A stretch of DNA of 34,586 nt. It comes from an uncultured Pseudomonadota bacterium. Lineage in GTDB: Bacteria; Desulfobacterota; Binatia; Binatales; Binataceae. Position numbers and translations under genes: made by a program. Positions 20,011 to 31,490 of this stretch are shown here, in pieces; the stretch's first letter is position 1, and each line of letters begins with the position of its first letter. Location: positions 1 through 34,586 of the forward strand of contig CALAOW010000011.1 in NCBI GenBank assembly GCA_937889395.1, given 5' to 3'. The notes below the pieces were generated by a model. The model had not been told where the DNA came from and searched no databases. It worked only from the letters and a program-made list of their open reading frames with translations.

Positions 20011-20772
20011 CTACAGCCCCGTGCGCGATTTCAGCCGGCGCTCGTAGAGCTTCGCGTATTTCAGAAATACGTAGAATGCGGCCGCCATCGCGGCGTACAA
20101 GCCGCGTCCGCCGTCGCGAAACCCGCCGCGGATAATATAAAAATTGAAAAACCGCCACGCCGGATTCGCTATCATCTTAAACGGCGTCAGCGCGTTCGGC
20201 TCCTGCTCCATCGCCGCCCGCGAGCTGAACCGGTTCATAGTCGCCACGTGATCCGCGATGTCGCGGTAGCTGAAATGCAGAATCGGCTGGTCGAGCCGCT
20301 CGAGGCGTCCTTCGACTACGACCTTGTCATGCGGATCGCGGCCGCCTATATGCCCGCGCTGGCGCCGGAACAGGCGCACCGGAGTGTCCGGATAAATCGC
20401 GTGCGAGTAGTAATGCCCCAGGTGGTACAGGATGCGCCGAATCCGGTAGCCGTCGGCGGGCGCCGGCGAGGACACCGTGCGCAGAATTTCCTCGCCGAGG
20501 TCGTGCGTCGCCTGCTCGTCGGCATCCATCAGCAGCACCCAGTCTCCCGTCGCGCGATCCAGCGCCATCTGCTTCTGCTTCACGTAGTTGGTGAACTCGT
20601 GCTGCACGACGTCGGCGCCAAGGCTGCGCGCAATCTCGACCGTCTTGTCGGTCGAGAACGAATCGATGATGATTTTCTCGTCGCAGAACCACGCGCTCTT
20701 CAGGCACTGGCCGATCAGCGCCTCTTCGTCGCGCGTAATCGTAATCAGCGAAATCTTTGGCCGCTCTGACAT
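20011..20772 (-). CDS. Family 2 glycosyltransferase, LPS-core (WaaE/KdtX-like) type
   Basis: The 253-residue protein begins ISLITITRDEEALIGQCLKS, then DEKIIIDSFSTDKTVEIA and the metal-binding MDADEQ (about residue 93). The SFSTDKT and DADEQ combination is characteristic of the WaaE/KdtX-like branch that adds hexose to LPS core heptose. A C-terminal hydrophobic/amphipathic part (YAAMAAAFYVFLKYAKLYERR) resembles the membrane-associating end of that branch. ATG at 20772 is chosen, 11 nt after the Mrp gene; the longer frame upstream is only the shadow of that gene. Confidence 0.85.
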   Translation of the reverse strand: MSERPKISLITITRDEEALIGQCLKSAWFCDEKIIIDSFSTDKTVEIARSLGADVVQHEFTNYVKQKQMALDRATGDWVLLMDADEQATHDLGEEILRTVSSPAPADGYRIRRILYHLGHYYSHAIYPDTPVRLFRRQRGHIGGRDPHDKVVVEGRLERLDQPILHFSYRDIADHVATMNRFSSRAAMEQEPNALTPFKMIANPAWRFFNFYIIRGGFRDGGRGLYAAMAAAFYVFLKYAKLYERRLKSRTGL

Positions 20773-20783
20773 CCTGTAAAAAA

Positions 20784-21848
20784 CTAAGACGCGTGCTGCG
20801 CTTCGGATCGGTCGAGTCCTTCGATCACTTTCGCCGCAATCGACTTGAACACCGCGCTCACCGGATGCGCCGGGTTGGCTGCGACGATCGGGCGTGCATT
20901 GTCTCCCCCCTCGCGCAGTTCGCGCACCAGCGGCAGCTCGCCCAGGAACGGCACGTTGAGCGAACGCGCCAGCGCGGCGCCGCCGCCGTGCCCGAAAATC
21001 TCGTGGCGATGGTTGCACTTGCGGCAAACGTAATAACTCATGTTCTCGACCACGCCGAGAACCGGCACGTGAACTTCCTCGAACATCGCGACTCCGCGCT
21101 TGACGTCGAGCAGCGCGAGTTCATTCGGCGTCGTCACGATCACGCCGCCGTCAAGCGCCACACGCTGCGTGATCGTCAGTTGCGCGTCGCCCGTGCCGGG
21201 AGGCAGGTCGAGCACCAGGCAATCCAGCTCGCCCCATTCGACGTTGAACAGAAATTCCGTCTCGAGCTTGGTGACCATCGGCCCGCGCCAGATGACCGCG
21301 GTCTCGTCGTTGATGAACAGCGCCATCGATATGTAGCGAATTCCGTACCGCTCCAACGGAACGATGCGCCGCTCGGGCGTGACTGTCACGGCCTTCTCGA
21401 CCCCGACCATCATCGCCACGCTTGGCCCGTACACGTCGGCGTCCATCAGGCCGACGCGCCATCCCAGCCCATGCATCGCGAGCGCGAGGTTCACCGCGAC
21501 GGTAGATTTGCCGACTCCGCCCTTGCCGCTGGCTACCGCGACGATGTGCTTGACGCCCGCGATTGTCCGCGGCTGCGCAATCCCGGCAGCCCTCGGCGCG
21601 CTCTGCGCAGGCCGTTCGATCTGGATGTTGACGGCAGGCACACCCGGCATCGCCGCAACCGCCGCCTTCACCTCGGCGACGATTTTCTCGACGACTTCGG
21701 GATTGGCCGACGCCATCGCGAGCGAGACGGTCACGCCCGCATGCGCGACTTCGATATCCTTTATGATCCCGAACGAGACGATGTCGCGGGTGAAGCCGGG
21801 GTATTTTATTTTCTTGAGTTCGGCGAGAATTTCATTTGGGCTCGGCAT
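20784..21848 (-). CDS. mrp: Mrp/ApbC-type iron-sulfur cluster carrier ATPase
   Basis: The 354-residue protein consists of an N-terminal MIP18/DUF59 domain (about 1-80) and a P-loop NTPase domain with the deviant Walker A SGKGGVGKST (about 107-116). The switch motif DLPPGTGD is followed by CRKC (about residues 275-278), the cysteine pair that binds an Fe-S cluster. Mrp/ApbC proteins carry Fe-S clusters to apo-proteins. It starts 130 nt from the divergent DUF4838-type gene. Family assignment is clear; the client proteins are unknown. Confidence 0.93.
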   Translation of the reverse strand: MPSPNEILAELKKIKYPGFTRDIVSFGIIKDIEVAHAGVTVSLAMASANPEVVEKIVAEVKAAVAAMPGVPAVNIQIERPAQSAPRAAGIAQPRTIAGVKHIVAVASGKGGVGKSTVAVNLALAMHGLGWRVGLMDADVYGPSVAMMVGVEKAVTVTPERRIVPLERYGIRYISMALFINDETAVIWRGPMVTKLETEFLFNVEWGELDCLVLDLPPGTGDAQLTITQRVALDGGVIVTTPNELALLDVKRGVAMFEEVHVPVLGVVENMSYYVCRKCNHRHEIFGHGGGAALARSLNVPFLGELPLVRELREGGDNARPIVAANPAHPVSAVFKSIAAKVIEGLDRSEAQHAS

Positions 21849-21977
21849 TGTGCAGATCGGACCTGTCGATGGTTTCGATTAGAATGCGGCCACGCTATCA
21901 AAGCGCGACGCTCATGTTATCATTCCGCAACCGCCGGAAAAACGACGGGTCGAACGCATCGGGAGTTATATTAGGAA

Positions 21978-23867
21978 GTGAGTAAAGAAGGCGCCGCCGC
22001 GCAGGCCCGTCCCCGAGTCCGCTTTAGCGGCGCCGGCGGCGAAGTTGCGGCGCTTGCTGCTCGCGATCTGTCGAGCGGACTCGCGGCGATGCTTGGGATG
22101 GAGGTCGGATCGTCCCCGGATGCGTCGATTCCGCGCGCCGAAATGAGAATCGACCTCGGCGATTCGGCGACCGCCGAGCACGCAGCGCCGATCGCACTCG
22201 AAGGCGACAGCTTCGACGTCTCACGCGAAGGCGGCGGCGCTGGATCGATAGTGATTCGTGCCGGGACGGAGCGCGGACTAATCCATGCGGCATCGAATCT
22301 GCTCGAAAAGCTCGGCGCACAGTTCCCACCGGGCGTGGCGCCATCGTATCCGCGCATCGAGAATGCCCGCGTTGGCGCGCTCGAACCCTGGCGCGTCACG
22401 CCAGCCTTCAAGCGCCGCGCATTCGTCTCCGACATCATGACCTGGAACTACAACTTCGCCGACCGCCTCGATTTGCATCTTCGCCACGACCGCGAATTCA
22501 TCCCATGGATGGCGCGGCGCGGAATCAACGCGTTCTCGTACATCCGCCACGCGCACGACACGCGCCTCAAGATCGACGAGATCGCGCCGCTGCTACGCGA
22601 GCGCGGAATAGACGTCGAATACGGCGGCCACGTCATCCAACTTCTGCTGCCGCGCGATCGCTTCGCCGAGCACCCCGAGTATTTCCCGGCCGGCGACGAC
22701 GGGGTTCGAGTCGCGCGCGGCAATCTCTGCGTCTCCGATCCCGACGCCGTTGCTATCGTCCGCGCGGGCGCGCTCGCCTACGTTCACGAGCATCCCGAGA
22801 ACAGGTTGCTGCACATCTGGGGCGCCGACGTATGGCGCGGCGCGTGGTGCCGATGCGGTCGATGCCGCGAGCTTCCGCCGCAGCTCCAATACATGGATGT
22901 CGTTAATGCAATCGGCGGCGCACTCGCCGCTGACTCCAACGCTCCGCCGATCGCCTATCTCGCCTATCACGACACCATCGATCCGCATCCCGGCCTGAAG
23001 CCGCTGGGCAACGTATGGTTCGAATGGGCGCCGCGCGAACGATGCTACAGCCATGCGATCGACGACCCGGCGTGCGAGATCAATCCGCGCTACCTCGAAT
23101 CGCTCAAACGCTACCTCGAGATCTTCGACGGACGCGGCCACGTCTTCGAGTATTACGCCGACGCGATCCTGTTCGGCGGGTTGGGCTTCGCGACGCCTGC
23201 GGTAGTGGCGCGCGATCTCCGCGCCTATCTGTCTGTTGGGATCACGAGCATTTCCTGCCTGACTTTTGGCGCGTACAGCGCGATGGCCTATCCTGTGAAC
23301 CTGGAGGCATTCGTTCGCGGCGCGCGAGATCCCGATTTCGAGCCTGATGCCACTCTAGTTGACACTTCCGCCGGCAGGCATCCGCGATGCGCCCCCGAAA
23401 TGGCCGCTGCCTATCGCGCTGTCGAGCGCGCGTCGAAGCTGTGCCTGGACTACGGCGACGTGATGAGCCCGGCGATGCCGCCCGAAAAGGCCGTGCACAA
23501 GCGCGACGAACTGCGAGAAGCCGCCTTGACGTTCAACGAGGCGATTGCCGCGGCCGACCAGATTGCGCTGAGCATTGATACCCCCCGCGCGGATGCCGAG
23601 AAGGATCTCTGGCGCTATAGCAGCGACGTGCTGGCGGGACTGTCTGACTATCTAGGCGCGATTGCAGACGCCGGCGCCGATCGCCGCGTACGTGGCAAAG
23701 CCGCCATCGCGAAAGTCGCGGGCGCCATCGCGCGCATCCGCGAGATCGATCCCGAAATCAAGGGGACCTGGGGCGCGTACGATCTCGAATGGATCCGCGA
23801 GATGTGGATCAGCGCGCTTGCGCGCGGGCTCGATGGAGACGGGAGACCGCCGGAGGAACTGTTCTGA
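21978..23867 (+). CDS. DUF4838-type putative glycan-active protein
   Basis: The 629-residue protein has an N-terminal small alpha/beta domain (about 1-105), as precedes the barrel in alpha-glucuronidases and GH20-type enzymes. A long barrel-like region follows, with RRAFVSDIMTWNYNFADRLDLH, the cysteine pattern WCRCGRC (about residue 293) and VFEYYAD, as in DUF4838 proteins. A C-terminal helical part starts near residue 470. No signal peptide is seen, so it is probably cytoplasmic. The GTG start at 21978 follows AGGA. Its stop overlaps the dehydrogenase start (TGATG), so the two are translationally coupled. The substrate is unknown. Confidence 0.72.
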   Translation: MSKEGAAAQARPRVRFSGAGGEVAALAARDLSSGLAAMLGMEVGSSPDASIPRAEMRIDLGDSATAEHAAPIALEGDSFDVSREGGGAGSIVIRAGTERGLIHAASNLLEKLGAQFPPGVAPSYPRIENARVGALEPWRVTPAFKRRAFVSDIMTWNYNFADRLDLHLRHDREFIPWMARRGINAFSYIRHAHDTRLKIDEIAPLLRERGIDVEYGGHVIQLLLPRDRFAEHPEYFPAGDDGVRVARGNLCVSDPDAVAIVRAGALAYVHEHPENRLLHIWGADVWRGAWCRCGRCRELPPQLQYMDVVNAIGGALAADSNAPPIAYLAYHDTIDPHPGLKPLGNVWFEWAPRERCYSHAIDDPACEINPRYLESLKRYLEIFDGRGHVFEYYADAILFGGLGFATPAVVARDLRAYLSVGITSISCLTFGAYSAMAYPVNLEAFVRGARDPDFEPDATLVDTSAGRHPRCAPEMAAAYRAVERASKLCLDYGDVMSPAMPPEKAVHKRDELREAALTFNEAIAAADQIALSIDTPRADAEKDLWRYSSDVLAGLSDYLGAIADAGADRRVRGKAAIAKVAGAIARIREIDPEIKGTWGAYDLEWIREMWISALARGLDGDGRPPEELF

Positions 23868-25030
23868 TGGACGCTGACAATGGATTCGTACTGTCGCCGG
23901 AACTGAGGTCGCTTCGCGACCAGGTGGGAAAGATAATCCGCGAGGAAATTATCCCGATCGAAGCGCGGATCGATCCCGACGCGCCCGAGATTCCCGAGGA
24001 TGAATTCTGGCCGATCGCGCGCAAGGTGCAAGCCGCGGGGATGTGGTGCATGGGCGCGCCGCGCGAGTACGGCGGCGGCGGCCTGGGCACTTTCGACATG
24101 TGCGTGCTGACCGAGGAAATGGCGCAGCATCGCATGGGCCTCTACAACCCTGGATGCGGGGTCTTCGGGCGCACCCCGCCACCGGTGATCTACGCGGGCA
24201 GCGAAGAACAGAAGCGCACCTACGCCGGCGGCACGATCAAGAATGCCTGGCACACCTTCTTCGCGATCACGGAACCGTCGGGCGGTTCCGATCCGGCCGG
24301 CGCGATCCAGTGCAAAGCGGTTCGCCAGGGCGATACCTACGTCCTCAACGGCACCAAGATTTTCATCTCGCATGCGCACGAGGCCGAGTGGGGCGTGGTC
24401 TTCACCCGCACCGACGCCAAGGCCGGCCGCAAGGGAATCACCTGCTTTATAATCAAGAAGGGCACGCCGGGATTCACGCCGCGGCCGATTCGCACGATCC
24501 GCACCTCGGCGGTACCCAATGAGGTTCAGTTCGAAGATTGCGTCGTGCCAATTGAGCAGCGGCTCGGGCCCGAGGGCGAGGGCCTGAATCTATGCCTCGA
24601 TCTGCTGACGCGGCTGCGCTTCCCGTACTCGGCGTGCAACGTCGGGGTGGGAGTGGCGGCGCTCAGGATGGCGATCGATCATGCCAAGCAGCGCAGCACC
24701 TTCGGCGAACTGCTCGCCAAGCGGCAGGCGATACAGTGGATGCTCGCGGATTCGGAGGTCGAGCTGCGCGCGGCGCGGTGGCTGACGTGGGAGGGAGCGT
24801 GGAAGGCCGATCGCGGCGAGGATTTCCGCACCGAGGCGTCGATCGCAAAGCTCTATTCGAGCGAAGTGCTCGGCCGGGTGGTCGATCGCGCCGTGCAGAT
24901 TCATGGCGGCTACGGCGTCAGCAAGGAGTTCCCCATCGAGCGATGGTACCGCGAGGCGCGAGTCCGCCGGATCGGCGAAGGCCCCAGCGAAGTGCATCGG
25001 ATGGTGATCGCGCGCGCGCTTTTGCGATGA
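23867..25030 (+). CDS. Acyl-CoA dehydrogenase
   Basis: The 387-residue flavoprotein has the family order: N-terminal helices with PREYGGGGLG, the middle beta domain with FAITEPSGGSDPAG (FAD contact) and LNGTKIFIS, and C-terminal helices with RSTFGELLAKRQAIQWMLAD and IHGGYGVSKEFPIERWYREAR. The final IGEGPSEVHR has a glutamate at the usual catalytic-base position. It catalyses alpha,beta-desaturation of an acyl-CoA, but the chain type is not clear. ATG at 23867 overlaps the previous stop and ends 22 nt before the CoA-transferase gene. Confidence 0.92.
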   Translation: MDADNGFVLSPELRSLRDQVGKIIREEIIPIEARIDPDAPEIPEDEFWPIARKVQAAGMWCMGAPREYGGGGLGTFDMCVLTEEMAQHRMGLYNPGCGVFGRTPPPVIYAGSEEQKRTYAGGTIKNAWHTFFAITEPSGGSDPAGAIQCKAVRQGDTYVLNGTKIFISHAHEAEWGVVFTRTDAKAGRKGITCFIIKKGTPGFTPRPIRTIRTSAVPNEVQFEDCVVPIEQRLGPEGEGLNLCLDLLTRLRFPYSACNVGVGVAALRMAIDHAKQRSTFGELLAKRQAIQWMLADSEVELRAARWLTWEGAWKADRGEDFRTEASIAKLYSSEVLGRVVDRAVQIHGGYGVSKEFPIERWYREARVRRIGEGPSEVHRMVIARALLR

Positions 25031-25052
25031 AGACTGAACAAGGAGAGGCGCG

Positions 25053-26237
25053 ATGAGTCTGCCGCTCGAGGGAATCCGCGTGATCGATCTGGGACAGGTT
25101 TACGCGGTGCCGTACTGCACGCTGCAACTCGCGGCGATGGGCGCCGATATCATCAAGATCGAGCCTCCCGTGACCGGCGAAGTGCTGCGGCAGCCGAAAA
25201 TCCCGCCGGGCGGCGCCGGTTACTCGTTCCTGATGCTCAATGCGAACAAACGCTCGGTCACGATCAATCTGAAGGACCGGCGCGGCTATGAAATCCTGCT
25301 CAAGCTGCTCGAGGACGCCGACGTGCTCGCCGAAAATTATCTTGACGGCGTGATGGAGTCGTTCGGACTGGGCTACGAGCAGATCGCCGCGCGGTTTCCG
25401 CGGCTGATTTACGCGTCGGGCAAGGGCTACGGCTCGAACAGCAGGTACGCGAAGCTTGGCTCGATGGACAATACGATCCAGGCGTCGTCGGGATTCATCA
25501 GTGTCACCGGATTTCCCGAGCATCCGGTGAAGACCCCCGCCACTTTCATCGACATGGGAACCGGGAGTCATCTGGTCAGCGGAATCCTGGCCGCGCTGAT
25601 ACATCGCGGGCGCACCGGCCGCGGACAGCATGTCGAGGTCGCGATGCTCGACGTGGCGATTCCCGCGCTGACCAGCGCGCTTGCGCCGGCGCTGCAAGGG
25701 ATGAAGTTCGGGCGGATGGGAAATCGTCATTGGGGCGCATGCCCGACCAACCTCTATCCCGCGCGCGACGGCGAGATATTGATCTTCTGCCTGACCGAAG
25801 CGCATTGGTGCACGCTGGCGAAATTGATGGGACGCGAAGAGCTGATCGCCGATCCGCGATACAGGAATCATGGCGCACGTCTGAAGATTGCCGACGAACT
25901 CGACGCGATTGTCTCCGATTGGACACGAGCACAGCCGCGCGACGCGATGGTCGAGGGACTGATCGAGGCGGGAATCCCATGCGCGCCGGTGCGCACGGTC
26001 GAGGAAGTGATCGCCGATCCTGAAACCGCTCAGCGCCATATGCTTATAGACAGCGAATATCCCACCCGGGGTCCAATCCGCGTCGCCGGCACACCAATCA
26101 AGATGTCCGATGCGCCCGAAGGCGACCGGCCGACGAGAAGGCCGCCCGAGCTTGGCGAGCACAACGCCGAAGTGCTCGGCTCGATCGGAATTGGCGCCGA
26201 CGAACTCGAACGCCTCAAGCGCGCCGGAGTCATCTAA
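25053..26237 (+). CDS. CaiB/BaiF family CoA transferase
   Basis: The 394-residue class III CoA transferase starts LPLEGIRVIDLGQVYAVPYCTLQLAAMGADIIKIEPP. LNANKRSVTINLKDRRG and the region FIDMGTGSHLVSGILAALIHRGRTGRGQHVEV carry the conserved aspartate that forms the acyl-enzyme anhydride. It moves CoA between carboxylic acids and probably activates the substrate of the neighbouring dehydrogenase. AAGGAGAGGCGC precedes the ATG. The last 33 codons (26136-26237) are repeated at 27920-28021. Confidence 0.92.
   Translation: MSLPLEGIRVIDLGQVYAVPYCTLQLAAMGADIIKIEPPVTGEVLRQPKIPPGGAGYSFLMLNANKRSVTINLKDRRGYEILLKLLEDADVLAENYLDGVMESFGLGYEQIAARFPRLIYASGKGYGSNSRYAKLGSMDNTIQASSGFISVTGFPEHPVKTPATFIDMGTGSHLVSGILAALIHRGRTGRGQHVEVAMLDVAIPALTSALAPALQGMKFGRMGNRHWGACPTNLYPARDGEILIFCLTEAHWCTLAKLMGREELIADPRYRNHGARLKIADELDAIVSDWTRAQPRDAMVEGLIEAGIPCAPVRTVEEVIADPETAQRHMLIDSEYPTRGPIRVAGTPIKMSDAPEGDRPTRRPPELGEHNAEVLGSIGIGADELERLKRAGVI
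26133..26237 (+). repeat. Direct repeat A: 3' end of the CoA-transferase gene
   Basis: These bases recur at 27917-28021 with about 14 differences in about 103. The first 28 matching bases, from GAGAAGGCCGCCC to GGCGAGCAC, are identical. Encoded proteins agree at 28 of 33 positions. The two copies bracket the intergenic repeats and the serpin gene. Confidence 0.9.
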
Positions 26238-26243
26238 TTGAAT

Positions 26244-26272
26244 GCGAAACCCACCGTGGGTTTCGCGCATCC
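26244..26272. repeat. GAAACCC palindromic repeat, copy 2
   Basis: GCGAAACCCAC and GTGGGTTTCGC form an 11-bp perfect inverted repeat around one base, followed by GCATCC. It matches the element at 3841-3867 in sequence and flank. It begins 7 nt after the CoA-transferase stop and could act as a transcript-end hairpin, though no T-run follows. Confidence 0.7.
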
Positions 26273-26276
26273 TTGG

Positions 26277-26293
26277 GCAGGGGTGACCCCTGC
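26277..26293. repeat. GCAGGGGTGACCCCTGC palindrome, copy 1
   Basis: This is a perfect 8-bp inverted repeat around a single G. An identical 17-mer occurs at 28751-28767, also immediately after a gene end. Confidence 0.85.
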
Positions 26294-26350
26294 ACCCAAC
26301 TAAAAGTGAAAAGAAAAGATGCGGGCTTCGCCCTGTTAGAACCTTTTTTG

Positions 26351-26374
26351 TGTCATTCTGAGCGCAGCGAAGAA
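26351..26374 (+). repeat. TGTCATTCTGAGCG-type dispersed repeat (short form)
   Basis: Bases 26352-26374 match the reverse complement of 28839-28861 at 22 of 23 positions. Related repeats of this form (TCATTCTGAGCGAAGCGAAGAA) occur in many environmental bacterial genomes, from memory of the motif rather than from a search. Confidence 0.75.
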
Positions 26375-26463
26375 ACCCGGCGCTGTGCTCGACGCCGCAC
26401 TATTCTCGGAATTACAGCAACTGAGCGTGGGTGCGAGGGCTGGCGTTGCACCTCATCCGGCGC

Positions 26464-26512
26464 TTGCTCTTTTGTGTCATCCCGAGCGAAGCCGAAGGAT
26501 CCCGGATCCTTG
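26464..26512 (+). repeat. TGTCATCCCGAGCG-type dispersed repeat (long form)
   Basis: It reads TTGCTCTTTTGTGTCATCCC, then GAGCG and a GGATC-containing end. It corresponds to the reverse complement of 28869-28924 and, more distantly, of 31448-31503. It lies before the serpin gene in the opposite orientation to those two. Confidence 0.75.
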
Positions 26513-26648
26513 CCGCGAGCCCGTGGCACCTCCCTGTATCGCGAGAGGCCGCGCCTCCGGCGCGGGTGAGGGACACCGGAATCGTGCAAAGGCCGGCCGT
26601 CTGGTGTATGCGTGGAGGCTGAATCAGAGTTCTAAATCCTGGGTCGAT

Positions 26649-27920
26649 ATGGAAATTCCGGCTTACATTCGCAACTTGATAGTGGCCGCGTTCGTATTCG
26701 CATCGATTGTGACCTCGTGCGCTCTGGTGAAAGGTGAAGACATCGGGGGCGCGAATATTCCCGCTCCCGACCCAGCGGTCACGAGCCGCGTTTCTTCAGC
26801 GACGGATGATTTCGGCTTTCGACTGCTGAAGGCGCTGGCCAAAGACCCGGCGCAAAATACCATCATATCCCCGCTTGGGGTCGCGACGGCGTTTGCCATG
26901 GCATACAACGGCGCCGCCGGCGATAACAAAACGGAGATGGCTAAGACGCTCGCTCTCGGATCGCTTGGCGACGAGGACATCAATCGAGCCAATCACTACT
27001 TGATGCACACCCTCGCGGCGGCGGATCCCGCGGTGCAGAGTGAAATCGCCAATGCGCTGTGGGTACAGAAAGACTTCCCAATCAACCCGGATTTTCGCAC
27101 AGTGTGCGAATCCTTCTACAATGCGAGCGCTGCCAGCCTGAATTTCATCGGCGATCCGGCGGGAGCCGCGGCGGAAATCAACTCGTGGGTTGACAAAAAC
27201 ACCCATCACCGGATTCCGGTCTTAGTCGCGGGGATTAGACCCGATACCCGGCTGATGCTGACCGACGCGGTCTACTTCAAAGGCCGCTGGTCATCGCAGT
27301 TCAAAAAAGCACAAACGCGGCCACGGCCGTTTCATCTTCTGAGCGGCGATTCGCGGCAGACCGCAATGATGGATCAATCGGGAAATTACTCTTACCTCGA
27401 GAATCAGAACTTCCAGGCCATTCGCATCCCCTATGGCAATCAGCGCTATGCGATGTACGTATTTATCCCGCGCGAGATGGCGGGACTGCACGATTTTATC
27501 CGCTCGCTCGATGAAACGCATTGGACGCAATGGACAAGTCAGTTTGCTCGAAGGTCCGGAGAGATAGTTATCCCAAAGTTCGAAACGACCTATAGCAAGC
27601 AGCTCAATGAGACTCTGAAGGAAATGGGAATGAGGTTGGCGTTCGATCGCATAGCAGCCGATTTTTCGCGAATTCATCCCTACCTATTTATCAGCGACGT
27701 TGAACATAAGACGTGGGTAAAGGTCGATGAGGAGGGAACCGAAGCCGCGGCGGCTACCTCAATCGGCATGAGTATGGCCCTTGCGGTTGGTACATCCATG
27801 CGTCCGTTTGTGATGATAGTGGATCACCCGTTCTTCTTCGCGATTACCGAGCAGCAATCCGGCGCGCTGTTGTTTGCCGGCGTTGTCATGGATCCGACGT
27901 TGACCGGTGGTGCGCGATGA
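26649..27920 (+). CDS. Serpin-family protease inhibitor, predicted lipoprotein
   Basis: The 423-residue protein has an export signal with a lipobox-like end (IVTSC, cysteine 24), so it is probably a membrane-anchored periplasmic or surface lipoprotein. From about residue 50 it is a full serpin: NTIISPLGVATAFAMAYNGAAG, LMLTDAVYFKGRWSSQF, and the signature DHPFFFAITEQQSGALLFAGVVMDP. The hinge of the reactive loop (residues 361-370, EEGTEAAAAT) is the inhibitory type. Counting from the P15 glycine puts P1-P1' near Ala377-Leu378, implying an elastase- or subtilisin-like target. ATG at 26649 is chosen at the signal peptide. Its TGA at 27918 overlaps the copied CoA-transferase tail. Confidence 0.9.
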   Translation: MEIPAYIRNLIVAAFVFASIVTSCALVKGEDIGGANIPAPDPAVTSRVSSATDDFGFRLLKALAKDPAQNTIISPLGVATAFAMAYNGAAGDNKTEMAKTLALGSLGDEDINRANHYLMHTLAAADPAVQSEIANALWVQKDFPINPDFRTVCESFYNASAASLNFIGDPAGAAAEINSWVDKNTHHRIPVLVAGIRPDTRLMLTDAVYFKGRWSSQFKKAQTRPRPFHLLSGDSRQTAMMDQSGNYSYLENQNFQAIRIPYGNQRYAMYVFIPREMAGLHDFIRSLDETHWTQWTSQFARRSGEIVIPKFETTYSKQLNETLKEMGMRLAFDRIAADFSRIHPYLFISDVEHKTWVKVDEEGTEAAAATSIGMSMALAVGTSMRPFVMIVDHPFFFAITEQQSGALLFAGVVMDPTLTGGAR

Positions 27921-28021
27921 GAAGGCCGCCCGAGCTTGGCGAGCACGACGCCGAAGTACTCGGGACGATCGGAATTGGCGCGGATGAGGCCAAACGCCTC
28001 AAGCGCGGTGGAGTTATCTGA
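27917..28021 (+). pseudogene. Second copy of the CoA-transferase 3' end (34-codon remnant)
   Basis: Starting with ATG (27917, overlapping the serpin stop as ATGA) and ending with TGA (28019-28021), the frame encodes RRPPELGEHDAEVLGTIGIGADEAKRLKRGGVI after the Met. That matches the C-terminus of the CaiB-type protein ending at 26237 in 28 of 33 residues. The remaining 360 or so residues are absent, so this is a fragment. It cannot be a functional transferase. The frame has stayed open, and several changes are at third bases. It is direct repeat B, partner of 26133-26237. Confidence 0.9.
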
Positions 28022-28061
28022 GCGGATGCGGGTTGCGCAATTGGTGGCGGAGGAGGGTGGA

Positions 28062-28751
28062 GTGGCCCGCGGGCGTTTTCGCGCGGTCATCCGGCGCGCA
28101 TCAGCGGTCGTGTTCGCGCTCGCAATCTCGAATGCGCTAATCGCGTGCGAGCCGACGGAGTCAACTGGCTATCCGCCCAACGACACCGGCGCCCCGGCTG
28201 AAGTCGGGAAAGCACGGCCGCTCGAGCTGTCGTCATCGGAGTTCGCGCTCGACATGGTCACGCCCGCCGGAATTCGCGTCAAGACGAACGGCCAGTATAA
28301 GACCGAGGCCGTGAGTAAGGCCGCGGCCCTTGCGATCGATCGTTACTGGAACGAAGTTCGCTCTTGCGCGGCCGGCGTGGAACGGCCCGGCGACATGGAT
28401 GTCCGCGACCTGACGGATGAGTTCCCGCGCCATCTGGCGGTTGAGATTGCGAACAACTGGAAGGTGGTCGAGGGTCCGACAACGCATCGCAGGATACAGG
28501 CGTTCCCGTCGATTGCGCGGCGGGGCTCGTGGTCAACGGCGCGGCGCCAGGAGGACGCGCTCTACATTGTAGTTGTCCCGGAGTTGAATGGACTCGGTCC
28601 GCAGATGGTCAATGAGCTGAATCTGTGGCTGAGCAAGAACGCGAACGTGCCGCCGACGGCGGATTTGGTCGGTGCGTGTGCGTCGGTCGCGTGCGTGAGG
28701 TTCAACTATAACAACGCGCCGTCGCAGGCATGGAACGAGTGCAAGCAGTAG
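28062..28751 (+). CDS. Predicted lipoprotein of unknown function
   Basis: The 229-residue product has a basic n-region (ARGRFRAVIRR), a hydrophobic core and the lipobox LIAC (cysteine 29), followed by a proline/glycine-rich linker. The mature part contains ALAIDRYWNEVRSC, LYIVVVPELNGLGPQMVNELNLWLSKNANVPPTADLVGACASVACVRFNYN, with four cysteines that may form disulfides. I do not recognise a domain. The GTG at 28062 is preferred because GGAGGAGGGTGG lies just upstream and it begins the signal peptide; ATG at 28026 would add 12 residues. It ends inside a palindromic repeat. Confidence 0.75.
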   Translation: MARGRFRAVIRRASAVVFALAISNALIACEPTESTGYPPNDTGAPAEVGKARPLELSSSEFALDMVTPAGIRVKTNGQYKTEAVSKAAALAIDRYWNEVRSCAAGVERPGDMDVRDLTDEFPRHLAVEIANNWKVVEGPTTHRRIQAFPSIARRGSWSTARRQEDALYIVVVPELNGLGPQMVNELNLWLSKNANVPPTADLVGACASVACVRFNYNNAPSQAWNECKQ

Positions 28752-28767
28752 CAGGGGTGACCCCTGC
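28751..28767. repeat. GCAGGGGTGACCCCTGC palindrome, copy 2
   Basis: It is identical over 17 bases to 26277-26293. Its first G is the last base of the lipoprotein's TAG stop. The position at a gene end in both cases suggests a preferred insertion site or a role at transcript ends. Confidence 0.85.
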
Positions 28768-28811
28768 CCGTTGGCACGGGAGGCCAGTATTAAGAAAGCG
28801 CGCGCTGCTTA

Positions 28812-28835
28812 CGCCGGACGCAGAAGCGTCCGGCG
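28812..28835. repeat. Perfect GC-rich hairpin
   Basis: CGCCGGACGC (28812-28821) and GCGTCCGGCG (28826-28835) pair over ten bases around the loop AGAA. It abuts the dispersed repeat that starts at 28839. No T-run follows on either strand, so it is better seen as part of the composite repeat than as a terminator. Confidence 0.7.
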
Positions 28836-28838
28836 AGA

Positions 28839-28924
28839 TTCTTCGCTTCGCTCAGAATGACGGAAACAAAGATCCGGGGTCCCTCGGCTCCGCAGACTCC
28901 GCTCGGGATGACACAAAAGAGCAG
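28839..28924 (-). repeat. Composite dispersed repeat before the ATPase gene
   Basis: On the minus strand it carries first the long form (28924-28869, matching 26464-26512 and resembling 31503-31448) and then the short form (28861-28839, matching 26352-26374). It fills most of the 240-nt gap between the lipoprotein and ATPase genes. Confidence 0.75.
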
Positions 28925-28983
28925 GGGGCGGGCACCTGCTGTTTCCCGGGGTAACCAATTATCCACATTTTGGTCTGCATAAC

Positions 28984-29014
28984 GTGACATTATGATGCTG
29001 CCTACTCTTATAGT
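28984..29014 (+). promoter_or_regulatory. Possible promoter of the ATPase gene
   Basis: GTGACA (28984-28989) and TATAGT (29009-29014) resemble -35 and -10 boxes with a 19-bp spacer. If used, transcription begins near 29020, downstream of the first ATG of the long frame (28992). That would favour the start at 29074 in the other frame. Confidence 0.35.
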
Positions 29015-31490
29015 CTCCTCCGATCGAGTTGCAGAAGGGCGCGGGAGCGAGCGGGCGCGCAGCAGAGGGCGCAATGGCAGTGCTGTCTCATCCGATGGAA
29101 TCGCACAACGGCGGAAAGCGGCGCGCGAGCGCGCCGCGCTAGTTCGAACTCGAGCCGCCTGCACCCGAACGATTGCGACTGGAGACGACGCCGCGCGTCT
29201 CGACCGTCGCGAGCTACGTGTTCACACGCGCGGCCGAACGCTCGTGGGGAAGTCCTCAATCAGCATCTTGCTGAGCCGCAAAGGGGCCGTGTTCTGGATT
29301 GGCGGCCCGGCCGGATGCGGCAAGACGCATTTCCTTGACTACGTAATCGCGCTGCAGAGGCGGGCGGGCGCGCTCGACGCGCAAAACATTCGGCGCCTGG
29401 TGTGCGGGCTCGAGCTGGCCGGACGGGTGAGTGCGGCAGAAGCCGAGCTGTTCCTGCTGAGCGTCCTGGCCGAGCAAATCGGCGGCGACCCGCGCTCGTC
29501 GGGCGATCTTTTCCGCCAGATGCGCGGTGCGGCCGCGTTGAACGTGGGGCTGGAGACTGCGCGGCGGACCGGAATCAGGGCGGTAACGGTTGCGATAGAT
29601 TTCGGAACGTCGCAATGCGAGTCGGCGGCGGATTTCTTTAAGATGCTAGCTCAAGTTGCCGCGTCGGTCCGCCAGGTAAAGTTCACCGTGATCGCAGCCG
29701 GGCGCGCGACGGCTCCGGAAGCGACGCGAGCGCTTGCGGTGGCGCCGCGCGACGCGAACGAGGAAACAATCATCGCGGTGCGGCGCGCGCGACGGCTGGT
29801 CGAGGACGCCGAGTTCGACGCCGGCATCGCGTACGCGGGAATAGATACGGCGGGCTTGGCGCCTGACTCGATTTTCCCGTTCCATCCGCTAACGCTTAGC
29901 GCGCTTCGAGCAATCGCCACCCGTCCCAATCCAGCCGGTGAAAGTTCCGATCCCGCAACGATCGTATCGCTGTCGCGCCTGGCCCGCGAAGTGTTGTCCT
30001 CGCCAATTTTCGCCGGCGCCGCCGGCGGCGGCGAATCGCCGGCGCGGCTGATCTACCCACCCGACCTGACGATGAACGCGGTAATTTCAAGCCAGATCAA
30101 GGCGCTCCTGGCTGAAGCCGGGCGCGCTGCGTGGAAGATTGCGCGCGACCGGATCGCCGATCTGGATGGGTACGAGAAGGACCTCGCGCGCGAAATAATC
30201 GACTCGCTGATCATGGAGAATGTGTGCGGCGGCACGGCGGCGCTCGCGATCGAAGAACTGCAGTCGCGAGTGCCGATGGTCGCACTCGGCGGTACGGCGG
30301 ATGAGCGGACGCTTGCGGCCGTGCGCGGGTTGCTGCGCCGATTGGAGGTGTCCACCGGCGGCGTGATCCGTTTCGAAACCGACGCGGCCCGGTTCGACCC
30401 GGAGGCCGCCGGCGCGCCAAATCTCGCGGCGTTCAACGCGGCGCTTGTGCTGGCGCGGCGATTCGATCCGCGGCTTGGGCTCGCGCGCGACCGCGAAGGG
30501 CTGGACGCACGCCTGAAGCGACTCGAAGCCGCGATGGCCGACGCAGTCGAGGCGGCAATCCGCACGCGCAACGTGCTCGCGTCGGCGCTTACGGAAGCGA
30601 ACCTCGAGATGCCCGCGGCTAATCGCGCGGCGGCGATGCTCGAGGCGGCGGCCGATCGATCGTATCTCGCGTCGGCCATCCAGATCGCCGACGCGTACGA
30701 GGCAATCGCGGCCGCTTGCGTGTCGATGCCGCGGATGCGTTCGATGCGCGAGTCTCTCACTGCGACAGGACTGCGCGCGGCGCCGGGCGAGGCCGGCTTA
30801 TCAGAAAGTGTCTCGCGTGAATCGGCGGTTGCTTCATTGGAGACCGAGTGCGAACTGCTCCGAGTGGAACTTGGGCCGCGAATCCTGACGGGCCCGCCGC
30901 GCAGTCTGGACGCGATGGAAGCACGCTTTCAAAAATTCAAATGGACGTACGTGCAGTGTTATCTGAGCGCGCATGAGCGATGGCGCCTGAAGATGGAGCG
31001 GCTGGAGCTGGTCGCCGGCGACGCGCGACGGTACTTCGACGCGCTCACGCGGCTCAACGCGATCGCCGCGCTCGGTCTCCCCGAAGGCGAGCAGCTGGGG
31101 GCGCGGATGGCGGAGCTAGCCGCGCGCGTGGTGCGATGCGAGCTTAAGGACGCAATCGCGCCCGAGACGACGCCGCGATGTTCGAGCTGCGGGTTTCAGC
31201 TGGGCGCGGCGTCGCCACAGGCGGAACTCGAGGAAGCGATGGAGGGGATTCGTCGCGCGCTCGAGATCAAACTGGCAGCGCTCTCGCAAAGCATGATCGC
31301 GCGCCTGATTCGCATTCACGACCGCGAGCATCGCCTCGAAGGATTCCTGAAGATCACGCAGGCCGCGCAGACCGACGCGCTGGTGCGGGTGCTCGACGAG
31401 AAGCTCGCGCGATACCTGGCGCAGGTGCTCGACGAAAATGAGACAGCGGATCCAGGGTTCCCCCGGCCCCGCAGACTTCGCTCGGGATAA
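28992..31490 (+). CDS. Large P-loop protein, PglY/DUF6079-like, probably truncated
   Basis: The open frame encodes up to 832 residues, but only the part after about residue 85 looks genuine. Walker A is GPAGCGKT (residues 105-112) within AVFWIGGPAGCGKTHFLDYV. The Walker B strand AVTVAIDFG has aspartate but no following glutamate. Helical regions lead to a CSSC zinc knuckle (cysteines 730 and 733) and a long amphipathic C-terminal helix. This order, with the GxxGxGKTHF loop, resembles PglY and the DUF6079 ATPases of BREX phage defence. That is inference from architecture, and no other BREX gene is in the window. The true N-terminus seems to lie in another frame (29074-29274). The last 14 codons come from a dispersed repeat. 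Confidence 0.6.
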   Translation: MMLPTLIVSSDRVAEGRGSERARSRGRNGSAVSSDGIAQRRKAARERAALVRTRAACTRTIATGDDAARLDRRELRVHTRGRTLVGKSSISILLSRKGAVFWIGGPAGCGKTHFLDYVIALQRRAGALDAQNIRRLVCGLELAGRVSAAEAELFLLSVLAEQIGGDPRSSGDLFRQMRGAAALNVGLETARRTGIRAVTVAIDFGTSQCESAADFFKMLAQVAASVRQVKFTVIAAGRATAPEATRALAVAPRDANEETIIAVRRARRLVEDAEFDAGIAYAGIDTAGLAPDSIFPFHPLTLSALRAIATRPNPAGESSDPATIVSLSRLAREVLSSPIFAGAAGGGESPARLIYPPDLTMNAVISSQIKALLAEAGRAAWKIARDRIADLDGYEKDLAREIIDSLIMENVCGGTAALAIEELQSRVPMVALGGTADERTLAAVRGLLRRLEVSTGGVIRFETDAARFDPEAAGAPNLAAFNAALVLARRFDPRLGLARDREGLDARLKRLEAAMADAVEAAIRTRNVLASALTEANLEMPAANRAAAMLEAAADRSYLASAIQIADAYEAIAAACVSMPRMRSMRESLTATGLRAAPGEAGLSESVSRESAVASLETECELLRVELGPRILTGPPRSLDAMEARFQKFKWTYVQCYLSAHERWRLKMERLELVAGDARRYFDALTRLNAIAALGLPEGEQLGARMAELAARVVRCELKDAIAPETTPRCSSCGFQLGAASPQAELEEAMEGIRRALEIKLAALSQSMIARLIRIHDREHRLEGFLKITQAAQTDALVRVLDEKLARYLAQVLDENETADPGFPRPRRLRSG
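29074..29274 (+). pseudogene. Displaced N-terminus of the PglY-like ATPase in another frame
   Basis: From ATG 29074, behind AGAGGG, this frame reads MAVLSHPMESHNGGKRRASAPR, then TAG (29140-29142), then FELEPPAPERLRLETTPRVS and TVASYVFTRAAERSWG. Between 29143 and 29247 third codon positions are mostly G or C, as in real genes here. After the G4 run (29246-29249) this frame turns AT-rich at third positions and soon stops. One extra G would join ...AAERSWG to KSSISILLSRKGAVFW in the long frame. Thus the gene carries at least a nonsense codon and a frameshift, unless either is a sequencing error. Confidence 0.6.

What the first reader, a model, noticed from the sequence alone, without database searches (positions are those of the whole stretch)
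26133..28021. Serpin gene bracketed by two copies of the CoA-transferase tail
The last 33 codons of the CaiB-type gene are repeated in the same orientation right after the serpin stop, with 28 of 33 residues and the first 28 bases identical. The copies enclose 1.7 kb that contains the serpin and several repeats. This is what remains after integration at, or recombination between, CoA-transferase genes. One scenario is that the serpin sat upstream of a paralogous caiB elsewhere and arrived by recombination at the shared tail. Another is that a caiB duplicate was deleted down to its tail. The divergence of about 14% means it is not a recent copy of the neighbouring gene.
Basis: partly seen in the sequence, partly recalled or inferred. 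Interest (0 to 1): 0.75.

Follow-up and report, generated by a model that had tools for sequence, protein, structure and literature searches.

The report
Serpin insertion that duplicated a gene tail
In a group of uncultured soil bacteria (Candidatus Binatus), a protease-inhibitor gene inserted between two neighbouring genes and left a second copy of the first gene's last 35 codons behind it; related species show the site empty, filled, filled with extra genes, and partly deleted, so the history can be read step by step, although the individual processes are already known.

Summary
Window 26131-26246 and 27915-28030 are 116-nt direct repeats at 84% identity, with 28 of 33 residues shared. They bracket a serpin gene (26649-27920). 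Genomes of the same genus settle most of the history. G003 and G004 (outgroups) and G001 have no serpin and one uninterrupted caiB tail, joined to the downstream gene through TGA-4 nt-ATG: an empty site. G005 (Ca. Binatus soli UBA7539) and G006 carry the serpin at exactly this place, with the second tail truncated differently in each. G002 has lost the serpin but keeps a scar: the serpin's upstream block, then the last 12 nt of the second tail. The insertion is therefore a single-locus event older than the G002 split, and G001 is best read as a seamless reversion. The downstream copy (t2) is in the ancestral context of the downstream gene; the upstream copy (t1) completes caiB. The tail belongs to this same caiB gene, not a paralogue, and no other serpin locus examined lies near a caiB. 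The likeliest mechanism is integration of a short circularised DNA by one crossover in the caiB tail, a reaction shown in E. coli to give 109-950 bp partial duplications. That step is inferred. Ordinary in kind, unusually well documented.

The parts
25053..26237 (+). caiB-type family III CoA-transferase, complete; its own tail (t1) is 26131-26237
   Evidence: Pfam PF02515, 3.6e-110; orthologue in all 7 genomes of the genus
26131..26246 (+). tail copy 1 (t1), in frame in caiB
   Evidence: 84% to t2
26238..26582 (+). intergenic stretch made of genus-wide interspersed repeats, present after t1 in G000, partly in G006 and G002, replaced by an MscS gene in G005
26583..26648 (+). serpin upstream block, conserved in G005 and G006 and left as a scar in G002
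26649..27920 (+). serpin gene: putative lipoprotein signal (VTSC, C24), inhibitory hinge EEGTEAAAA; GC 55.3% against 62.5% for the window
   Evidence: Pfam PF00079, 1.1e-108
27915..28030 (+). tail copy 2 (t2), isolated; 34-codon open frame 27917-28021 overlapping the serpin stop
28026..28751 (+). downstream gene, no Pfam family, start 4 nt after the t2 stop; joined directly to caiB in the empty-site species

Best explanation
An ancestor of a Ca. Binatus subclade had caiB followed 4 nt later by a downstream gene. A block of about 1.4 kb (upstream block plus serpin) entered at this junction and the last ~105 nt of caiB were duplicated, so caiB kept an intact C-terminus (t1) and the downstream gene kept its original upstream sequence (t2). 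[Shown: empty, filled and scarred states in relatives.] The most likely reaction is a single crossover between the chromosomal caiB tail and a small circularised DNA carrying a caiB tail and the serpin, with the circle closed by an illegitimate join at the serpin stop (GCG|CGATGAG). [Inferred.] Afterwards t2, no longer part of caiB, was free to erode: intact in G000, split in G005, only its last ~24 nt in G006, 12 nt in G002. The site also gained other genes in G005 and reverted seamlessly in G001, probably by t1 x t2 recombination or replacement by an empty allele. [Inferred.] The serpin itself is probably an inhibitory, membrane-anchored protease inhibitor. [Inferred from sequence.]
For: Empty site: in G001, window 20275-26246 and 27915-28767 align to overlapping, contiguous stretches, i.e. 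one tail; same in G003 and G004. Junction GGAGTCGTCTGA(GCGG/ACGG/ACAA)ATG is conserved there and on t2. G005 and G006 have the serpin at the same place. G002 keeps the upstream block (local alignment score 46 against 27 for the best of 2000 shuffles; 59 against 33 using the G006 block) and GGAGTTGTCTGA before the downstream ATG (11 of 12 at a fixed place, P about 2e-6) although its caiB has its own tail. Trees put G002 outside G000/G001/G005/G006 with 100% support and G003+G004 outside that. t1-t2 dS 0.34 and serpin G000-G006 dS 0.365 are older than the radiation (dS 0.13-0.19 in caiB), nearer the G002 split. Serpin GC is low. Mechanism: in E. coli, 56 of 60 rare recombinants from a cut plasmid carried a partial duplication of the homologous gene end; 14 sequenced cases were 109-950 bp and were ascribed to single crossover of a re-circularised molecule (PMC3240628).
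Against: No donor with serpin beside a caiB tail was found outside this locus. The single-crossover step is by analogy only, and competence of Ca. Binatus is unknown. G005 t2 differs from its t1 by six changes in 63 nt, all synonymous (simulated neutral P 0.0002 or less), so it behaved as coding sequence until recently; a simple free erosion of one old t2 does not predict this, and a second recombination is needed. The first 27 nt of t1 and t2 in G000 are identical, which also hints at later exchange. All genomes appear to be metagenome assemblies.
Confidence: 0.6

Rival explanations
1. caiB was tandemly duplicated in full and the second copy was then replaced by the serpin and deleted down to its last 35 codons.
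For: Also gives two same-strand tails with t2 in the ancestral context of the downstream gene.
Against: No species shows any caiB sequence upstream of the CGATGAG boundary; the serpin meets the tail at the same CGATGA in G000 and G005 (first 20 nt kept) and ends in the same CGATGA in G006. The deletion would have had to end at the serpin stop.
Confidence: 0.15
2. Illegitimate insertion without a circle: homology-facilitated illegitimate recombination, or template switching at a staggered break, copied the caiB tail on both sides of the captured serpin block.
For: A short shared sequence (CGATGAG) lies at the t2 junction and GTACTCG at the G005 junction.
Against: Homology-facilitated illegitimate recombination usually deletes recipient DNA rather than duplicating it (PMC3240628); no natural case was available to compare.
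Confidence: 0.17
3. Site-specific integrative element using the 3' end of caiB as attachment site and bringing its own replacement tail.
For: Such elements duplicate gene ends and keep the target gene whole (general knowledge); extra cargo in G005 fits a hot spot.
Against: No integrase or transposase in the insert or among the larger window proteins scanned; the insert is one gene in G000 and G006; no serpin relative in viral contigs.
Confidence: 0.06
4. t2 is a functional small ORF or a translation-coupling leader between the serpin and the downstream gene.
For: ATGA overlap with the serpin stop, open frame to a TGA 4 nt before the downstream ATG; in G006 the shortened remnant is still in that frame.
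Against: Five residue changes in G000; frame lost in G005 and no start codon in G002; no comparable fragment at other serpin loci.
Confidence: 0.08

Closest known systems
Insertion-duplication by single crossover of a re-circularised fragment (E. coli pJA2/lacZ, PMC3240628)
   Same: Foreign DNA flanked by a partial direct duplication of the gene end it shares with the chromosome, 109-950 bp there and about 105-116 here.
   Different: There a laboratory plasmid; here a natural, old event, with no donor molecule known and diverged repeats.
Transformation-generated merodiploids in Streptococcus pneumoniae (PMC3784515)
   Same: DNA uptake with partial homology producing direct duplications.
   Different: Those are tandem duplications of about 100 to 900 kb by unequal crossing-over between chromatids.
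Genomic islands integrated at gene 3' ends
   Same: Gene end duplicated, target gene kept whole.
   Different: No integrase, no island, no defined core site here.
Prokaryotic serpins (PMC8233489)
   Same: Pfam serpin domain and the inhibitory hinge ExGTEAAAA described for hub-like prokaryotic serpins.
   Different: Nothing unusual; sparse in the genus and of lower GC than its surroundings.

Membership tests
Serpin (PF00079) | Full-length serpin domain | tested here: met
   residues 51-416, profile 2-370 of 370, E 1.1e-108
Inhibitory serpin | Hinge motif ExGTEAAAA | tested here: met
   EEGTEAAAA in G000, G005 and G006; motif definition in PMC8233489
Inhibitory serpin | Inhibits a protease by the stressed-to-relaxed change | not testable with these tools
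   needs biochemistry
Insertion with target duplication | Empty-site relatives with a single uninterrupted target | tested here: met
   G001, G003, G004
Insertion by single crossover | Donor circle or locus carrying both tail and insert | tested here: inconclusive
   none found in family genomes, 395 phylum genomes, other named genomes or viral contigs; its absence does not exclude the reaction
3'-end integrative element | Integrase gene within the repeats | tested here: not met
   only the serpin lies between the repeats
IS or transposon | Transposase and short target duplication of about 2-14 bp | tested here: not met
   no transposase; duplication of about 105 nt
Full caiB tandem duplicate | caiB homology beyond the tail in the second copy | tested here: not met
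   homology stops at 27915 in G000; not exceeded in G005 or G006

The most novel reading that the evidence does not exclude
The caiB/downstream-gene junction is a gene-capture hot spot without mobile-element machinery: because the downstream gene takes its translation start region from the caiB tail, only insertions that duplicate that junction keep both genes working, so tail-duplicating captures recur here (the old serpin event, and a second join at GTACTCG in G005, with an MscS gene and a 155-residue gene as further cargo).
Probability: 0.2. Interest if true: 0.55.

Novelty: new member of a known kind. Interest (0 to 1): 0.38.

Why it matters
Gene gain in tightly packed bacterial operons is usually seen only as the end product. 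Here seven related genomes show the empty site, the filled site, filled sites with the duplicate worn away, an imprecise loss with a scar and a seamless single tail, so the route by which a lone non-mobile gene enters and leaves an operon can be followed. It also suggests a testable rule: tolerated insertions between tightly spaced genes carry a copy of the junction. It would not change how serpins or CoA-transferases are understood.

Tried and rejected
Paralogue origin of t2: the next best match in the own genome is a distant CoA-transferase tail at 73%; rejected. Donor search: G023 has the nearest family relative of the serpin outside the genus (52%), but it sits among unrelated genes; 17 further serpin loci in the phylum and five named loci elsewhere lack caiB within the stretches held, mostly about 1.5 kb on each side in the phylum loci. 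Viral contigs: no match. Plasmid serpins: all below 60% identity. RNA family search over 25900-29300: only chance-level matches. The single tail of G001 as a t1/t2 hybrid: its body is t1-like and its end t2-like, but outgroups have the same end, so it does not discriminate. The serpin upstream block as a purely repetitive element: only one copy per genome passed in five of the seven genus genomes, so its presence at this site in G002 is informative.

Full report
What is there. The window is contig 11 of a 2.75 Mb draft genome in 206 contigs. caiB (25053-26237, CoA-transferase family III) is followed by about 410 nt of intergenic sequence, a serpin (26649-27920) and a gene of unknown family (28026-28751). 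The last part of caiB is repeated directly behind the serpin: 26131-26246 and 27915-28030, 116 nt, 84%. In frame there are 14 differences in 102 nt, seven synonymous and seven not, and 28 of 33 residues agree.

The empty site. In G001, G003 and G004, from the same genus, caiB runs through one uninterrupted tail straight into the downstream gene. The junction is caiB...GGAGTCGTC TGA, 4 nt, ATG in all three. The same junction, not the one behind caiB, is found on the second tail of the window (GGAGTTATC TGAGCGG ATG). So t2 is the copy in the ancestral context of the downstream gene and t1 is the copy that completes caiB.

The filled sites. G005 and G006 have the serpin at the same place, at 90% and 81% amino-acid identity. 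In G006 almost all of t2 is gone: the serpin stop overlaps ATGATGTCCGGC, followed by AAGCGCGATGGGGTAGTCTGAGTCGGATG, the last part of the tail. In G005 an MscS-type channel gene lies between t1 and the serpin. The serpin is followed by the first 20 nt of t2, then by a 155-residue gene, then by a 5' fragment of a second serpin joined at GTACTCG to the rest of t2. The 155-residue gene is present at another locus in G001 and G006, where G000 and G005 lack it, so single genes do move in this genus.

The scar. G002 has no serpin match (its genome is about 85% complete, but the contig spans this site). Its caiB has a full tail and stop of its own. Then come about 190 nt which contain a repeat element, a stretch matching the serpin's upstream block (local alignment score 46 against a maximum of 27 in 2000 shuffles; with the G006 block 59 against 33), and GGAGTTGTCTGA directly before the downstream gene (11 of 12 against the tail end at a fixed place, P about 2e-6). 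This is what remains after a deletion from the start of the serpin to near the end of t2.

Timing. Trees of the flanking 2.4 kb place G002 outside G000/G001/G005/G006 with 100% support, and G003+G004 outside that group; the order within the four is not resolved. The insertion is therefore older than the G002 split, and the seamless single tail of G001 is most simply a reversion, by recombination between the two tails or by import of an empty allele. Divergences agree: t1-t2 synonymous divergence in G000 is 0.34, and the serpins of G000 and G006 differ by 0.365, whereas caiB differs by 0.13-0.19 within the four species and by 0.57-0.63 from G002, and the neighbouring acyl-CoA dehydrogenase by 0.13-0.17 and 0.41-0.46. 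The t1-t2 value rests on 33 codons and is imprecise.

An unresolved point. In G005, t2 differs from t1 by six changes in 63 nt, all synonymous; random substitution gives this at most about twice in 10,000 trials. That piece of t2 must have been part of a working caiB for most of its divergence. Together with the different join (GTACTCG instead of CGATGAG), this suggests a second recombination in G005 that used the tail of an empty-site allele. Recurrent exchange would also explain why the first 27 nt of t1 and t2 in G000 are identical and why the G006 serpin is more diverged than its surroundings. These are inferences from short sequences.

Mechanism. Nothing between the repeats encodes a recombinase, no mobile-element family appeared among the larger window proteins scanned, and a duplication of about 105 nt is far longer than transposon target duplications (general knowledge). 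A partial duplication of a gene end flanking inserted DNA is what Amarir-Bouhram and colleagues found in E. coli when linearised molecules re-circularised and entered by a single crossover: 56 of 60 clones, 109-950 bp in 14 sequenced (PMC3240628). I take this as the most likely reaction here. Homology-facilitated illegitimate recombination, template switching, or erosion of a full caiB duplicate remain possible.

The serpin. It is a full serpin domain with the inhibitory hinge EEGTEAAAA, a predicted lipoprotein cysteine (C24, by eye), dN/dS about 0.3 between species and GC 55% against 62% around it. It is sparse: among 58 relatives searched, only the three genomes with this locus and G023 carry a good full-length match, with one weak match in a fifth. 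It is probably a functional, laterally acquired, surface-anchored protease inhibitor; nothing in its sequence is exceptional.

Verdict. A real, ordinary kind of event, seen in unusual completeness. Interest is moderate: the set of states at one site, and the idea that tolerated insertions in tight operons must copy the junction, are worth a short note.

Noticed in passing
26235-26341 and similar sequences genome-wide: Palindromic intergenic repeats (AATGCGAAACCCACCGTGGGTTTCGC, GCAGGGGTGACCCCTGC) occur in dozens of copies per genome in at least five species of the genus.
   Followed up: partly
26339-26502 and 28831-28931: Inverted pairs of a TTTGTGTCATYCYGAGCG element flank the serpin and the downstream gene at 80% complementarity.
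   Followed up: no
26579-26636 and L036 1501-1558: The serpin upstream block has a 93% identical copy in G003 in front of an unrelated gene, closer than the copies in sister species.
   Followed up: partly
L122 (G001:C12:29069-29527), L123 (G006:C42:40445-40903), L069 8657-9121: A gene for a 155-residue protein without Pfam family lies at one locus in G001 and G006 and at the caiB/serpin locus in G005; G000 lacks it.
   Followed up: partly
28026-28751: The downstream gene evolves much faster than its neighbours (dN 0.07-0.10 within the four close species).
   Followed up: no
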